Positions 1,505 through 31,846 of a stretch of DNA of 31,846 nt are shown in pieces (within the stretch, counting starts at the first letter, position 1; each line of letters opens with the position of its first letter). The stretch comes from a virus. The stretch lies in the IMG/VR virus record IMGVR_UViG_3300030104_002013, positions 1 through 31,846 of that record; one strand, given 5' to 3'. The notes below the pieces were generated by a model. The model was not told where the DNA came from and did not search any database. It saw only the letters and a program-made list of their open reading frames with translations. The position numbers were made by a program, and so were the translations under genes.

Positions 1505-1863
1505 AAAAAGGACTGGGAGATAAGGTTGAAAAGTTTACTGAATGGACTGGTTTAAAAAAATTAGTCAAATCTATTTTTGGTGAAGATTGTGGGTGCGATG
1601 AACGAAAAGCCAAACTCAACCAAATGTTTCCAAATTTTAAAAACATCAGACCGTTTAACGAAACAGAAAAACAAATATTTGAAGAAATATTACCACAAGT
1701 TGAAAAAAAGAATGCTATTAGTCCAGATGAGAAAAAAACCTTGTCAGTATTATATAAAGCTGTGTTTCAACAGGATCCATCTTGGAGTAATTGTGGAAGT
1801 TGTAATATAAAAGTTTTAAATAATTTAAAAAGAGTATATTCAAAATCGTGCAATACAAAATAG
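1498..1863 (+). CDS. Hypothetical phage protein with CGC motif
   Basis: The protein has 121 residues. The N-terminal pattern GDKVEKFTEWTGLKKLVK followed by GEDCGCDERKAKLNQMFP resembles a hypothetical protein common in Bacteroidota phages and prophages, usually found near head or terminase genes; I know of no established function. Cysteines occur as two groups, DCGCDE (about 31-35) and NCGSC (about 98-102), which together could bind one metal ion. No signal peptide or membrane segment is visible. It ends inside the start of the QueD gene (16-base overlap), so it is co-translated with the modification cassette. Confidence 0.65.
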   Translation: MVEKGLGDKVEKFTEWTGLKKLVKSIFGEDCGCDERKAKLNQMFPNFKNIRPFNETEKQIFEEILPQVEKKNAISPDEKKTLSVLYKAVFQQDPSWSNCGSCNIKVLNNLKRVYSKSCNTK

Positions 1864-2270
1864 AAAAGAAATATCACTTTTATGCAGGGCATAGGAACGA
1901 AAATTTGAATGACAAATGTTTCAATTTACACGGACACACATATTATATTAATATGTTTTTTGAATTTGATTATAATGTAGAAACAGGAATAACATTTTTA
2001 TTCAGCGATATAGATAAAATTGTTGATCCAATAATAAAAGAATTAGACCATTCATTATTAATACACGATAAAGACCCATTATTAAAGTATTTAAACCTTT
2101 TTATCAAAGAAGAAAACACACCGCTAAAATTATATAAAATGAATCAAACAACAAGTGCGGAAAATTTAAGCAAAATGATATTTGAAATGGTAGATAAATA
2201 TTTACCAATTAAGAAAATAACATTACAAGAAACAACATCAAGTATAGTTAGTTATGAAATTAGCAATTAG
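1848..2270 (+). CDS. queD: QueD, 6-carboxytetrahydropterin synthase
   Basis: The 140-residue protein is a member of the 6-pyruvoyl-tetrahydropterin synthase family. It converts 7,8-dihydroneopterin triphosphate, the FolE product, to 6-carboxy-tetrahydropterin, the second step of preQ0 synthesis. The zinc ligands are visible as His15 (AGHR), His28 and His30 (HGHTY). The catalytic cysteine is Cys24 four residues before HGH, the Asp67-His68 pair lies in KELDHSLL, and a late glutamate sits in QETTSS (Glu128). All active-site residues are present. The start is GTG at 1848; no in-frame ATG precedes the AGHR motif. It overlaps the upstream gene by 16 bases and QueE by 17. It acts in the cytoplasm and is the first gene of a five-gene 7-deazaguanine cassette. 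Confidence 0.93.
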   Translation: MQYKIEKKYHFYAGHRNENLNDKCFNLHGHTYYINMFFEFDYNVETGITFLFSDIDKIVDPIIKELDHSLLIHDKDPLLKYLNLFIKEENTPLKLYKMNQTTSAENLSKMIFEMVDKYLPIKKITLQETTSSIVSYEISN

Positions 2271-2988
2271 CGAACATTTTTATTCATTACAGGGCGAGGG
2301 AAAAACAATGGGAAAACCCTCTGTTTTTTTAAGGCTGACAGCTTGTAATCTAATGTGTGGTGGTAGAGGAACAGAAAAAGATAAAAAGCTACACAATGGA
2401 GCAACGTGGAGATGTGATAGTATAGAGGTGTGGAGAACAGGGCGAAACCTACCTATTGAAGAAGTGGTAGCTGAATTAATGGCTTACGAAAAAGATTTCT
2501 ATAATGGTGCACACTTAATTATAACAGGTGGTGAACCTTTATTACAACAGAAAGCGTTAGAACCGTTCATTGAAACATTAGTTGATATGTTGGGATATAA
2601 ACCATTCATTGAAATAGAAACAAACGGAACCATAACACCAAAAGGAAAACTATTTACATACATAGACCTTTTTAATTGTAGTCCAAAACTATCAAATAGT
2701 GGAGAGGAATTGAAAAGAAGATACAAACCCGATACACTTAACTTTTTAAATTTAACAAGAAGTATATTCAAATTTGTTGTTAGTAATGAAAAAGACCTAC
2801 AAGAAGTATTATTAATAGTAGACAAATGTAATATCTTTCCAAATAAAGTGTATTTAATGCCCTCTGCGAGCGATATAAAAGAATTAGAGGGAAATACACC
2901 ACAGACGGTGGAATGGTGTTTAAAACAAGGATTTAATTTTTCAACAAGATTACAGATAATAATATGGAACCAAACAACAGGAGTATAA
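2254..2988 (+). CDS. queE: QueE, 7-carboxy-7-deazaguanine synthase (radical SAM)
   Basis: The 244-residue radical SAM enzyme rearranges 6-carboxy-tetrahydropterin to 7-carboxy-7-deazaguanine (CDG). The start resembles the family (FYSLQGEGKTMGKPSVFLRL). The cluster cysteines are Cys31, Cys35 and Cys54, spaced C-x3-C-x18-C-D, so an insertion sits between the second and third ligands where many bacterial enzymes have two residues. Also visible are the SAM-binding ITGGEPLLQQ, EIETNGT and NCSPKL. Active-site features appear intact. It overlaps QueD by 17 bases and the FolE fusion by 25 bases, which implies coupled translation. Confidence 0.93.
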   Translation: MKLAISEHFYSLQGEGKTMGKPSVFLRLTACNLMCGGRGTEKDKKLHNGATWRCDSIEVWRTGRNLPIEEVVAELMAYEKDFYNGAHLIITGGEPLLQQKALEPFIETLVDMLGYKPFIEIETNGTITPKGKLFTYIDLFNCSPKLSNSGEELKRRYKPDTLNFLNLTRSIFKFVVSNEKDLQEVLLIVDKCNIFPNKVYLMPSASDIKELEGNTPQTVEWCLKQGFNFSTRLQIIIWNQTTGV

Positions 2989-3830
2989 GCTGGGTAGAAA
3001 TATATCAGCAAATAGATAAAATACTTAATCAATTAGAAAACAAGAAACACAAAGCATACGGAATACCGAGAGGTGGACAGGTTGTAGTGGGAATGCTGGG
3101 TTTTTGTAATGAGAAAATTGAGGTGGTTGAAGATCCAAATCAAGCCGATATTATTGTTGATGATTTATACGATAGTGGAACAACATATCAAAAGTGGAAA
3201 AAGAAATATCCTCAAGCTGATTTCTATTTTCTATTTGATAAAAGGGAAAAAGAATATGCTGGTAGATGGTTAGAGTTTCCGTGGGAGAATAGTGGAGACA
3301 AAGAAGTAGAGGAAAATGTAATAAGATTATTAGAATATTATGGTGAAGATGTTAATCGAGAGGGTTTAAAAGAAACACCCAAAAGATATATAAAATTCTT
3401 TAAAGAATTTTTAAACCCACCACTCTGGAAACCAACAACATTTTCTTCTGAAGGATATGACCAAATGATTGTTCAAACAAATATACCGTTTCACTCTTTA
3501 TGTGAACATCATATTGCACCGTTTTTTGGAGTAGGACATATTGCATACATACCAAATAAAAAAATAATTGGCTTAAGTAAATTAGCAAGAACACTTGAAA
3601 CATTTAGTAGACAATTACAGAATCAAGAGAGAATTACAAATCAAGTAGTAGATTTTCTAATGAAAGAATTAGAACCGCTTGGTGTTGGCTGTGTTATTAA
3701 AGCAAAGCATATGTGTATGGAAATGAGGGGCGTTAAGAAACACGATACATACACTACAACCTCTGCGTTGAGAGGTGTGTTTGAAAATAAAGAACAAAAA
3801 GACGAATTTTTTAAACTTATTGAATTATGA
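2964..3830 (+). CDS. folE: Phosphoribosyltransferase-GTP cyclohydrolase I fusion
   Basis: This 288-residue protein has two domains. Residues 1-105 look like a type I phosphoribosyltransferase, with YGIPRGGQVVVG (32-43) and the PRPP-binding loop ADIIVDDLYDSGTT (61-74). Residues 115-288 are GTP cyclohydrolase I, which makes dihydroneopterin triphosphate from GTP, the first step to preQ0. It keeps the zinc ligands Cys180, His183 and Cys251, with His182 and His249 in SLCEHHIAPF and KAKHMCMEMRG. Canonical FolE has about 190-220 residues with its own N-terminal helices, so the first domain is an addition. The role of the added domain is not known; salvage of a purine-like base or handling of the 7-deazaguanine product is a guess. 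The start ATG at 2964 lies inside queE. Confidence 0.88.
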   Translation: MEPNNRSISWVEIYQQIDKILNQLENKKHKAYGIPRGGQVVVGMLGFCNEKIEVVEDPNQADIIVDDLYDSGTTYQKWKKKYPQADFYFLFDKREKEYAGRWLEFPWENSGDKEVEENVIRLLEYYGEDVNREGLKETPKRYIKFFKEFLNPPLWKPTTFSSEGYDQMIVQTNIPFHSLCEHHIAPFFGVGHIAYIPNKKIIGLSKLARTLETFSRQLQNQERITNQVVDFLMKELEPLGVGCVIKAKHMCMEMRGVKKHDTYTTTSALRGVFENKEQKDEFFKLIEL

Positions 3831-4492
3831 AAAAAGCAATAGTGTTATTATCGGGTGGTCAAGATAGCACCACTTGTTTGTATTGGGCATTGAGAAACTT
3901 TAAAAAAGTTCTAGCAATCGGTTTTGATTACGGACAAAAGCATTTAAAAGAAATAGAATGTGCTAAAAAAATATGTAAAGATGTAGGAGTGCCTTATGAA
4001 TTAATAAACATAAAAGAATTGCTAGGAAATTCAGCTTTAACAAATCATAATCAAGATATAAATTCAAACCATAAAGATTTAGAACACTTGCCTGCAAGTT
4101 TTGTTCCCGCAAGAAATGCTTTATTTTTAACCGTTGCCACCACTTATGCTTTTAATAATGGAATAAAAAATATAATAACTGGCACGTGTCAAACGGATTA
4201 TAGTGGCTATCCAGATTGTAGACAAGTATTTATTAATAGTTTATCGGTTTCATTATCTTTAGCATTAGACACAGACATTAAAATACACACTCCTTTAATG
4301 TATTTAGACAAAGCACAAACGTGGAAATTAGCAAAAGATTTAGATTGTTTAGATGTTATAATTAAAGACACAATGACTGATTATAATGGATCTCAAAAGA
4401 TGAACGAGTGGGGCAGAGGGGAATTAGACAATCCAGCAAGTGAATTAAGAGCAAAAGGATATTACAAGGCAAAGGAAAACGGTTGGTTATGA
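3827..4492 (+). CDS. queC: QueC-like preQ0 synthase lacking zinc cysteines
   Basis: The 221-residue PP-loop ATPase of the QueC family uses ATP and ammonia to convert CDG through the amide ADG to the nitrile preQ0. The PP-loop LSGGQDSTT (residues 8-16) and the substrate signature GTCQTDYSGYPDCR are present. The C-terminal zinc knuckle is altered: where QueC normally has TCYNG then C-G-x-C-x2-C, this protein reads TMTDYNG (182-188) and EWGRGELDNPASELRAKGY (194-212), with none of the four cysteines. The downstream LRAKG stretch still aligns, so this is not a frameshift. It may be folded without zinc or may stop at ADG. The start overlaps folE by four bases (ATGA). Confidence 0.9.
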   Translation: MKKAIVLLSGGQDSTTCLYWALRNFKKVLAIGFDYGQKHLKEIECAKKICKDVGVPYELINIKELLGNSALTNHNQDINSNHKDLEHLPASFVPARNALFLTVATTYAFNNGIKNIITGTCQTDYSGYPDCRQVFINSLSVSLSLALDTDIKIHTPLMYLDKAQTWKLAKDLDCLDVIIKDTMTDYNGSQKMNEWGRGELDNPASELRAKGYYKAKENGWL

Positions 4493-5232
4493 AAATATAT
4501 TTTGCAAGTTATATAACAAGTCCAAAAATTTTAAAAGTTGAAGGAGATTTTGGAGTATTAATTTCTTATGTTGAAATAAACAAAAAAGGAATAGATGATT
4601 TAAAGAAACCTATAATTTTAGATAGTGGGGCTTTTTCAATAGCATCGGGAAAATCTAAACATACATTAGACGATTATATAAAATTTCTACACAAGAATAA
4701 ACATAAAGTAGAATGGTATGCTAATTTAGATATTATAGGAAATGCTAAAGCAACGTATGATAATCAAAAGGAAATGGAAAAACAAGGATTAAGCCCTGTT
4801 CCCACTTTTCATTATGGAAGTGATTTCAAATGGTTAAAAAAATATAAAGAAGAATATAATTTCATAGGATTGGGCGGGTTAGTTCCATATGCAAAACAAA
4901 AAAAGAAATTATTTAAACATTTATCCAAATGCTTTAATATATTGCGGTCAGATGTTAAAACGCACGGATGGGGAATGTTTGGAAAAAAAACTTTAGAAAC
5001 ATATCCTTTTTATTCTGTAGACAGCACGAGTTGGTTGTATGGTGGAAAGATGAGAAAAAAAGTAGATTTTTTAGAAAAAAATAAAGACGGAGACTGGAGA
5101 AAAGGTGAACCATCATTCGCAAGAGTAATGCACTTTCACGATTTAAACATACATAATGCAAAAGAGTATTTAAAACTTAATAATTATATAACAAAATTAT
5201 GGGAAAAAAGAGGAATAAAATGGGATACATAG
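4489..5232 (+). CDS. dpdA: DpdA-like DNA 7-deazaguanine transglycosylase
   Basis: The 247-residue protein resembles the tRNA-guanine transglycosylase superfamily, in the DpdA group that exchanges guanine for a 7-deazaguanine base in DNA. Visible motifs are ILDSGAFS with Asp45, WYANLDIIGN with Asp81, a GLGGLVP glycine loop, HGWGMFG and YSVDSTSW. It is clearly shorter than TGT (about 370 residues) and lacks the TGT zinc motif C-x-C-x2-C, as expected for phage DpdA forms. Position directly after QueC (ATGA overlap) fits a role as the final, DNA-modifying enzyme. ATG at 4489 is chosen over TTG at 4483. Family assignment rests on motifs and context; the exact DpdA subgroup is not determined. Confidence 0.85.
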   Translation: MKIYFASYITSPKILKVEGDFGVLISYVEINKKGIDDLKKPIILDSGAFSIASGKSKHTLDDYIKFLHKNKHKVEWYANLDIIGNAKATYDNQKEMEKQGLSPVPTFHYGSDFKWLKKYKEEYNFIGLGGLVPYAKQKKKLFKHLSKCFNILRSDVKTHGWGMFGKKTLETYPFYSVDSTSWLYGGKMRKKVDFLEKNKDGDWRKGEPSFARVMHFHDLNIHNAKEYLKLNNYITKLWEKRGIKWDT

Positions 5233-31172: not shown

Positions 31173-31401
31173 AATTTATATGCAATATTTTGATTATTGT
31201 TTAGATGATGTAATTTTGTGTGAGTATTGTAATGCGAAAGCTGTCGATATTCATCACATAAAGCCTCGAGGTTTGGGGGGCAGTAAAACTAAAGACTTTA
31301 TTGCAAACCTCGTGGCCTTATGTAGACCTTGCCATATTAAAGCTGAACATAATAAAGAGTTTAATCAAAGAGTGAAAGAAATTCATTTAAAAAATTTATG
31401 A
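31156..31401 (+). CDS. HNH endonuclease
   Basis: The 81-residue protein has a full HNH core: the first pair LCEYCNA (Cys22, Cys25), then DIHHIKPRGLGG (HH pair), NLVALCRPCH (Asn, second Cys pair and final His). It is a stand-alone HNH, often found near phage replication or terminase genes, where it may help packaging or recombination. The distance to terminase (about 7 kb across the circle) makes packaging less likely. The stop overlaps the methyltransferase start (ATGA). Confidence 0.85.
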   Translation: MKKHTKIYMQYFDYCLDDVILCEYCNAKAVDIHHIKPRGLGGSKTKDFIANLVALCRPCHIKAEHNKEFNQRVKEIHLKNL

Positions 31402-31846
31402 AAGTATTGGAATTATTTGCTGGTAGTAGGTCATTCAGTAAAGTGGCTGAACAAATGGAAATGGAAACATTTACAACTGACTATAAAGATTTTGAAAGAA
31501 TAGATTATGTATGTGATATATTAGATTTTGATATAAATAAAATACCATTCAAGCCAGATATTATTTGGGCTAGTCCACCGTGCACTACATTTTCAATAGC
31601 AAGTTGCTCAACACATTGGACTAAAGATAAAAAACCCAAAACTGAAAAGTGTTTAAAAGGTATATTAATGATTAAAAAAACATTATCAATAATACAATAT
31701 TTAAAACCAAAATATTATTATATAGAAAACCCAAGAGGACTATTAAGAAAAATGAGTTTTATGCAAAATGTTGGAATAAGAAACACCGTCACGTATTGTC
31801 AATATGGAGATAGTAGAATGAAGCCAACCGATATATGGACTAATAA
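31398..31846 (+). CDS. C5 cytosine DNA methyltransferase, N-terminal part (continues at 95-254)
   Basis: Joined across the circle the protein is 202 residues. Motif I is LELFAGSRSFSKVA (4-17), the catalytic cysteine is Cys62 in the motif-IV WASPPCTTFS, and motif VI is YYIENPRGL with Glu110 (ENP instead of the more usual ENV). Motif VIII-like residues lie after the join. The family methylates C5 of cytosine in DNA with S-adenosylmethionine. It is far shorter than host enzymes (about 330 residues) because little target-recognition domain remains, as in a group of small phage methylases. It overlaps the HNH gene and leads into VRR-NUC. Confidence 0.88.
   Translation, partial: MKVLELFAGSRSFSKVAEQMEMETFTTDYKDFERIDYVCDILDFDINKIPFKPDIIWASPPCTTFSIASCSTHWTKDKKPKTEKCLKGILMIKKTLSIIQYLKPKYYYIENPRGLLRKMSFMQNVGIRNTVTYCQYGDSRMKPTDIWTN
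31753..31846. repeat. Terminal direct repeat, copy B
   Basis: Exact copy of 1-94. The methyltransferase reading frame crosses it in the same phase, so it is an overlap of a circular assembly. Confidence 0.95.

What the first reader, a model, noticed from the sequence alone, without database searches (positions are those of the whole stretch)
2964..3830. Phosphoribosyltransferase domain fused to GTP cyclohydrolase I
Residues 1-105 contain YGIPRGG and ADIIVDDLYDSGTT, the signature of PRPP-binding transferases, directly joined to a complete FolE domain with all zinc ligands. I do not recall a described function for this fusion. It may link base salvage or nucleotide formation of a 7-deazaguanine to its synthesis, or supply GTP locally.
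Basis: partly seen in the sequence, partly recalled or inferred. Interest (0 to 1): 0.75.

Follow-up and report, generated by a model that had tools for sequence, protein, structure and literature searches.

The report
Lidless PRTase fused to phage FolE
Many phages that swap the guanines in their DNA for 7-deazaguanines carry the first enzyme of that pathway (FolE) fused to a cut-down purine-salvage enzyme, which most likely recycles the guanine thrown out by the swap, a step that papers on this DNA modification which I could read do not mention.

Summary
ORF 2964-3830 is one 288-aa protein: residues 1-110 have a type I phosphoribosyltransferase (PRTase) fold and residues 111-288 are a complete FolE. 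The model is confident (pLDDT 94). The N-domain superposes on E. coli xanthine-guanine PRTase (Gpt; Z 13.4, 2.4 Å over 106 of 110 residues) but lacks its catalytic lid, flexible loop II. In 121 aligned fusions, the only N-domain residues conserved at 95% or more lie in the PPi loop, the PRPP loop and the purine-stacking hood. The lysine that contacts purine O6 is at 94%.

The fusion is widespread: I recovered 163 further loci, and 55 of the 56 with long flanks also encode DpdA. Related PRTases that are not fused sit next to folE and queE in other phages. The domain is therefore a recurrent part of phage 7-deazaguanine DNA modification, and published records label it only as FolE.

My preferred mechanism, inferred and untested: the domain converts guanine released by DpdA to GMP, refilling the GTP that FolE consumes and pulling the exchange forward (about 0.45). 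Main rival: a non-catalytic PRPP- or nucleotide-sensing domain controlling FolE (about 0.27). Making a 7-deazaguanine nucleotide is less likely. New variant of a known kind.

The parts
2964..3830 (+). PRTase-FolE fusion protein, 288 aa
   Evidence: one chain modelled at pLDDT 94.1, pTM 0.81
2964..3293 (+). N-terminal lidless Gpt-type phosphoribosyltransferase domain, residues 1-110
   Evidence: AF2 model alone pLDDT 94.1; VIA-align Z 13.4 to E. coli XGPRT 4jls; profile vs PDB E 1e-15 to 5e-17
3066..3077 (+). PPi loop PRGG (residues 35-38; R36 = Gpt R37)
   Evidence: R36 and G38 invariant in 121 fusions; mapping
3144..3185 (+). PRPP loop ADIIVDDLYDSGTT (residues 61-74; D66/D67 = Gpt D88/D89, D70 = D92, T74 = T96)
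   Evidence: D66, D67, D70, T74 121/121; mapping
3240..3242 (+). K93 (= Gpt K115, purine O6 ligand)
   Evidence: 114/121 conserved; mapping
3267..3287 (+). hood WLEFPWE (residues 102-108; W102 = Gpt W134, E108 = D140)
   Evidence: W102 and E108 121/121; mapping
3294..3830 (+). FolE (GTP cyclohydrolase I) domain, Zn ligands C180, H183, C251
   Evidence: PF01227 E 2e-62, TIGR00063 over cut-off, Foldseek to T. thermophilus FolE 1wm9 E 2.5e-21
1848..2270 (+). QueD
   Evidence: PF01242 E 5e-23, phrog_2389
2254..2988 (+). QueE (overlaps the fusion by 25 bp)
   Evidence: phrog_2076 E 1.5e-56
3827..4492 (+). QueC (ATGA overlap with the fusion)
   Evidence: PF06508 E 2e-66
4489..5232 (+). DpdA, DNA-guanine transglycosylase
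   Evidence: phrog_887 E 2.5e-45 (scanned from the TTG at 4483)

Best explanation
The protein is a bifunctional accessory of the phage's 7-deazaguanine DNA-modification pathway. SHOWN: the N-domain is a PRTase fold of the Gpt (xanthine-guanine PRTase) lineage that keeps the PPi loop, the PRPP loop, the O6-contacting lysine and the purine-stacking tryptophan but has lost flexible loop II; the C-domain is a complete FolE; and it sits in one overlapping operon with queD, queE, queC and dpdA. INFERRED: DpdA swaps guanine in the DNA for the 7-deazaguanine base and releases one guanine per swap. The N-domain joins that guanine to PRPP to give GMP, host kinases return it to GTP, and the adjoining FolE domain spends GTP on the next 7-deazaguanine. 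Removing free guanine would also pull the reversible exchange forward and keep guanine from competing in DpdA's base pocket. Catalysis without the lid is the weakest step.
For: (1) Fold and lineage: Z 13.4 to E. coli XGPRT, hhalign probability 98.9, profile E about 1e-15 to XGPRT. NCBIfam's best PRTase model for the fusion and for its unfused relatives is xanthine PRTase NF006613. (2) The only N-domain residues conserved at 95% or more in 121 fusions are active-site motifs, and K93 is at 94%. D70 corresponds to Gpt D92, i.e. the HGPRT aspartate that handles purine N7 (own knowledge of 6-oxopurine PRTases); its invariance suits guanine, which has N7, better than 7-deazaguanines, which do not. 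(3) Context: of 163 further fusion loci, 153 have a que/dpd gene within 100 bp; of the 56 with 4.4 kb or more on both sides, 55 have DpdA, 56 QueD, 55 QueE. (4) PRTases found with PRTase-only queries and not fused lie in the same neighbourhood: 51 of 59 well-flanked loci have a pathway gene, 67 of 101 have folE within 500 bp. In Flavobacterium phage immuto the order is queD-queE-PRTase-folE-dpdA, a split version of the window. (5) Some PRTases next to folE keep a full-length lid region (Brevundimonas phage StAshley, L296, L302, L308), so a PRTase with the usual catalytic parts does occupy this niche. (6) The fusion is independent of end product: it occurs with QueC, Gat-QueC, QueF-like genes or no QueC, which points to a substrate common to all DpdA systems. 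(7) Purifying selection on the domain.
Against: All 142 fusions whose spacing could be measured have only 20-35 residues between the RGG and DD motifs, against 48 in Gpt, so the lid that closes over PRPP in type I PRTases is missing; activity is not assured. Free guanine can also be salvaged by host Gpt/Hpt. GMP still needs two host kinase steps before FolE can use it, so fusion gives no direct channelling. At least 34 FolE loci of related systems, most with DpdA, have no such PRTase, so it is dispensable. No biochemical data.
Confidence: 0.45

Rival explanations
1. The N-domain is a non-catalytic, PRTase-derived ligand sensor: it binds PRPP, GMP/guanine or (p)ppGpp in the retained pocket and switches the FolE decamer on or off, much as GFRP regulates animal GTP cyclohydrolase I, so that the phage does not drain GTP.
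For: The catalytic lid is missing in the fused forms and in the immuto-type separate forms, while ligand-binding residues are kept. Structural neighbours include regulatory PRTases (PyrR, Z about 10) and a Neisseria PRTase solved with ppGpp (5vog, Z 11.3). The domain takes the place of FolE's N-terminal region, and the mammalian enzyme is known in complexes with its regulator GFRP (PDB titles).
Against: D70, the general acid/base position, is retained in all 121 fusions although mere binding would not need it. PRTases with a full-length lid region sit in the same folE-adjacent niche.
Confidence: 0.27
2. The N-domain makes the ribonucleotide of the 7-deazaguanine (CDG, preQ0 or ADG plus PRPP), as TubE does in tubercidin biosynthesis, for incorporation through the nucleotide pool.
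For: TubE is a proven CDG phosphoribosyltransferase beside FolE/QueD/QueE homologues (PMC6112128). Phages CP220, phi13:1 and StAshley carry unfused PRTases together with ribonucleotide reductase, and modified dGTP has been proposed for Campylobacter phages (PMC6884629).
Against: Fused forms almost always coexist with DpdA, which needs the free base (55 of 56). No ribonucleotide reductase in 22 of 22 fusion phage records. Family scans of most window ORFs show no DNA polymerase, nucleotide kinase or reductase. The N7-contact aspartate is invariant. The family is Gpt, whereas TubE is described only as a purine PRTase and could not be compared here.
Confidence: 0.14
3. The domain is a structural remnant used only for assembly or docking of FolE with QueD/QueE/DpdA, with no small-molecule ligand.
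For: Reduced fold; fused in one operon with the partner enzymes.
Against: Strict conservation is confined to the ligand-binding motifs while the rest varies.
Confidence: 0.06

Closest known systems
E. coli xanthine-guanine phosphoribosyltransferase Gpt/XGPRT (1a95, 4jls) and Pyrococcus horikoshii purine PRTase (1vdm)
   Same: Fold over 106 of 110 residues; PPi loop, PRPP loop, O6 lysine and tryptophan hood in the same order and positions
   Different: A deletion of about 20 residues removes flexible loop II and its supporting strand, and about 10 more are missing before the hood; 110 instead of about 150 residues; fused to FolE
Bacterial/animal GTP cyclohydrolase I (FolE)
   Same: Complete catalytic domain, zinc ligands, about 40% identity to T. 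thermophilus FolE
   Different: A PRTase domain in place of the usual N-terminal region
TubE / ToyH of deazapurine nucleoside antibiotics
   Same: A purine-type PRTase encoded beside FolE, QueD and QueE homologues; TubE shown to use CDG + PRPP (PMC6112128)
   Different: Not fused; makes a ribotide for an antibiotic; DpdA is not part of that pathway; sequence not compared here
Phage 7-deazaguanine DNA modification (9g, CAjan, Rosebush: FolE-QueD-QueE-QueC-DpdA; PMC6884629)
   Same: Same gene set and operon logic
   Different: The paper does not mention a PRTase or the N-terminal domain; its text contains no 'phosphoribosyl'
GFRP-regulated GTP cyclohydrolase I
   Same: Possible analogue if the domain regulates FolE
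   Different: GFRP is an unrelated fold and a separate protein (own knowledge)

Membership tests
Type I PRTase, Gpt (XGPRT) lineage | PRTase core fold | tested here: met
   AF2 pLDDT 94; Z 13.4, rmsd 2.4, 106 of 110 aligned
Type I PRTase, Gpt (XGPRT) lineage | PRPP loop hh[DE]D..D[ST]G.T and PPi loop RGG | tested here: met
   D66, D67, D70, T74, R36, G38 invariant in 121 fusions
Type I PRTase, Gpt (XGPRT) lineage | 6-oxopurine pocket: Lys (K115) and stacking Trp (W134) | tested here: met
   K93 114/121, W102 121/121
Type I PRTase, Gpt (XGPRT) lineage | flexible catalytic loop II | tested here: not met
   RGG to DD spacing 20-35 vs 48 in Gpt; alignment gap
Type I PRTase, Gpt (XGPRT) lineage | NCBIfam equivalog cut-off for xanthine PRTase NF006613 | tested here: not met
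   25.3 bits vs cut-off 138, though E 9e-6
Type I PRTase, Gpt (XGPRT) lineage | PRTase activity | not testable with these tools
   needs enzyme assay
FolE (GTP cyclohydrolase I) | family profile and zinc ligands | tested here: met
   PF01227 E 2e-62; TIGR00063 over cut-off; C180, H183, C251 conserved
[quoted passage not shown]
   window 1848-5232
Phage 7-deazaguanine DNA-modification system | 7-deazaguanine present in the phage DNA | not testable with these tools
   needs mass spectrometry of virion DNA
TubE-like 7-deazaguanine PRTase (nucleotide route) | phage-encoded means to carry the ribotide to a dNTP (ribonucleotide reductase) | tested here: not met
   PF02867 absent from 22 of 22 fusion phage records; window ORF scans show none. 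Host enzymes could substitute, so this is not decisive
TubE-like 7-deazaguanine PRTase (nucleotide route) | sequence relationship to TubE/ToyH | not tested
   sequences not at hand

The most novel reading that the evidence does not exclude
Phage DNA-modification operons contain a dedicated guanine-recycling module that closes the loop DNA-guanine -> GMP -> GTP -> 7-deazaguanine -> DNA and thermodynamically drives DpdA, using an unusually small PRTase architecture that works without a catalytic lid.
Probability: 0.35. Interest if true: 0.75.

Novelty: new variant of a known kind. Interest (0 to 1): 0.6.

Why it matters
The published scheme for phage 7-deazaguanine DNA lists FolE, QueD, QueE, QueC, DpdA and tailoring enzymes and leaves out what happens to the guanine that is displaced. 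A conserved PRTase in these operons, fused or separate, suggests that this guanine (or the GTP budget of the infected cell) is managed. By my own arithmetic, a genome of about 31.75 kb holds roughly 9,900 guanines, so a burst of 100 with a quarter of them replaced releases and consumes about 2.5 x 10^5 molecules, comparable to a bacterial GTP pool. It also supplies a natural minimal PRTase for asking whether the lid is essential. In public records the domain is hidden under the label GTP cyclohydrolase; only the unfused relatives are called phosphoribosyl transferase.

Tried and rejected
Loop length against DpdA: within locus flanks, none of the 10 well-flanked long-lid PRTases had DpdA, which looked like a clean split between nucleotide-route and exchange-route enzymes. 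Searching the whole records with a broader DpdA alignment found DpdA-like genes in several of them and in CP220 and phi13:1, so I dropped that claim. The PHROG profile for DpdA (phrog_887) missed known DpdA genes such as that of immuto and was not used for counting. Foldseek of the full chain returned only FolE, so the N-domain was modelled and searched alone. A tree of the domain puts all 60 sampled fusions in one clade, but with support of only 0.64, so a single origin is likely, not shown. I looked for remnants of the PRTase in 34 FolE-only relatives and found none. Papers most likely to discuss this (Cui 2023 and Olsen 2023, both NAR) are not held; the original Campylobacter dADG paper was known here only through its citation in PMC6884629. 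Prior mention therefore cannot be excluded.

Full report
OBSERVATION. The ORF at 2964-3830 encodes 288 aa and carries both quoted motifs. The C-terminal part is FolE (PF01227 E 2e-62, residues 116-286), passes the TIGR00063 equivalog cut-off and keeps the zinc ligands C180, H183, C251. The window looks like a complete, circularly represented phage genome: 94 bp are repeated at its ends, and it is held as a virus record of 31,846 bases. The fusion overlaps queE by 25 bp and queC by 4 bp; queD lies upstream and dpdA downstream.

FOLD. With an alignment of 94 fusions, AlphaFold2 gives pLDDT 94.1 and pTM 0.81 for the full chain. Residues 1-110 alone, with 123 related domains, give pLDDT 94.1 and pTM 0.86. 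The best structural matches are E. coli and Yersinia XGPRT (Z 12.5-13.4, rmsd 2.2-2.4, about 107 residues), S. solfataricus HGXPRT (12.6) and P. horikoshii purine PRTase (12.4), well above PyrR (about 10) and HPRTs (8-9.6). Sequence profiles agree: 1vdm E 5e-17 and XGPRT about 1e-15, hhalign to Gpt 98.9%. The mapping is R36=R37, D66/D67=D88/D89, D70=D92, T74=T96, K93=K115, W102=W134, E108=D140.

WHAT IS MISSING. The alignment to Gpt has one gap of about 22 residues, where flexible loop II and the strand before it should be, and one of about 10 residues before the tryptophan hood. RGG-to-DD spacing is 48 in Gpt and 20-35 in the 142 fusions where both motifs could be placed. Among unfused relatives it falls into a short set (26-40) and a long set (47-70). 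Since loop II is a defining feature of working type I PRTases and was tested and not found, I do not file the domain as a bona fide XGPRT. I describe it as a lidless PRTase-fold domain of the Gpt lineage.

CONSTRAINT. In 121 aligned fusions, sixteen N-domain positions are conserved at 95% or more, and all sixteen are in the PPi loop, the PRPP loop or the hood; K93 follows at 94%. dN/dS is 0.07-0.23 for the PRTase part and 0.03-0.18 for FolE between the window and its closest relatives where dS was not saturated. The pocket is kept and the rest drifts, which argues for a ligand.

DISTRIBUTION. The fusion occurs in Pseudomonas (NP1, PaMx25, Quinobequin-P09), Stenotrophomonas, Xanthomonas, Variovorax, Sphingomonas (MMDA13) and Vibrio (VpKK5, 1.207.B) phages, usually annotated only as GTP cyclohydrolase. 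IMG/VR scans gave most of the 163 further loci (tally). Gene orders differ (dpdA-queC-queD-queE-fusion; queE-queC-queD-fusion-dpdA; queD-queE-fusion-queC-dpdA), yet the fusion stays with the pathway: 153 of 163 have a pathway gene within 100 bp, and of 56 loci with long flanks 55 have dpdA, 56 queD, 55 queE, 42 queC. In cellular genomes I found it only in two contigs of one MAG, with the whole cluster.

UNFUSED RELATIVES. Queries with PRTase-only proteins (P0009, P0010) returned 101 unfused loci. Of these 79 hold folE (67 within 500 bp), and 51 of 59 with long flanks hold some pathway gene. Flavobacterium phage immuto has queD, queE, PRTase, folE and dpdA in that order, a split version of the window. 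Brevundimonas phage StAshley has a PRTase with a full-length lid region beside folE, ribonucleotide reductase and a dNMP kinase, with no DpdA match in its record. This is two-way evidence, by fusion and by neighbourhood, that the PRTase belongs to the pathway.

WHICH SUBSTRATE. Three arguments favour guanine over a 7-deazaguanine for the fused form. First, DpdA is almost always present and needs the free 7-deazaguanine base, so turning that base into a nucleotide would be counter-productive; DpdA's by-product is guanine. Second, the fusion is kept whatever the end product would be. Third, the Gpt D92 position (in HGPRT the aspartate that handles purine N7; own knowledge) is invariant, and N7 is absent from 7-deazaguanines. 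In addition none of 22 fusion phage records has a ribonucleotide reductase, while four of four named phages with unfused PRTases do; genome size confounds that contrast. Against: TubE shows that a purine PRTase can take CDG (PMC6112128). None of this is proof.

CATALYSIS OR SENSING. The missing lid is the main reason for doubt. That PRTases with a full-length lid region occupy the same folE-adjacent niche suggests that the chemistry, not just binding, is wanted. That fused and immuto-type forms both lack the lid, in groups that separate in a weakly supported tree, suggests that something about this setting makes the lid unnecessary, or that the domain has become a sensor. I put recycling at 0.45, sensing at 0.27, ribotide formation at 0.14 and scaffold at 0.06.

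KNOWN OR NOT. The main paper on phage 7-deazaguanine DNA (PMC6884629) has no occurrence of 'phosphoribosyl'. The MMDA13 paper has none either and calls the gene FolE, with the FolE domain annotated only from residue 116. A search for papers holding phosphoribosyltransferase, DpdA, preQ0 and phage found none. The library is incomplete, so this is weak evidence of novelty. Each domain is known, the pathway is known, and the combination and its likely role appear not to be described: new variant of a known kind.

Noticed in passing
L109:2540-4919 (also L041, L050): Fusion phages with dpdA, queD and queE but no detectable queC carry, between dpdA and queD, an ORF of about 384 aa with weak similarity to GT4 glycosyltransferases (PF00534 E 3e-4) and a small protein weakly resembling QueD (PF01242 E 0.003; phrog_17812 E 3e-18). 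Perhaps these DNAs hold CDG or a glycosylated 7-deazaguanine.
   Followed up: partly
Campylobacter phage CP220 NC_027997.1:54675-55331; Cellulophaga phage phi13:1 KC821625.1:30489-31112: DpdA-like genes (E 6e-30 and 4e-14 with alignment A4). CP220-type Campylobacter phages have been placed among phages without DpdA and proposed to use modified dGTP; this deserves a check.
   Followed up: partly
L095:6001-6870: Compared with the window, the PRTase half is closer (dN 0.06) than the FolE half (dN 0.19), the reverse of most relatives: possible recombination at the domain boundary.
   Followed up: no
window 31398-31846 continuing into 1-254: A C-5 cytosine DNA methylase-like gene (PF00145 E 2e-8) runs across the ends of the record, which share a 94-bp repeat, so the phage may carry a second kind of DNA modification.
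   Followed up: no
L309:3350-4789 and L310:3398-4798: DpdA-like ORFs of 467-480 aa with a long N-terminal extension, beside a PRTase and the que genes.
   Followed up: no
L157:5810-8350: DpdA-like ORF of 847 aa whose DpdA part appears to be interrupted, possibly by an intein or similar insertion.
   Followed up: no
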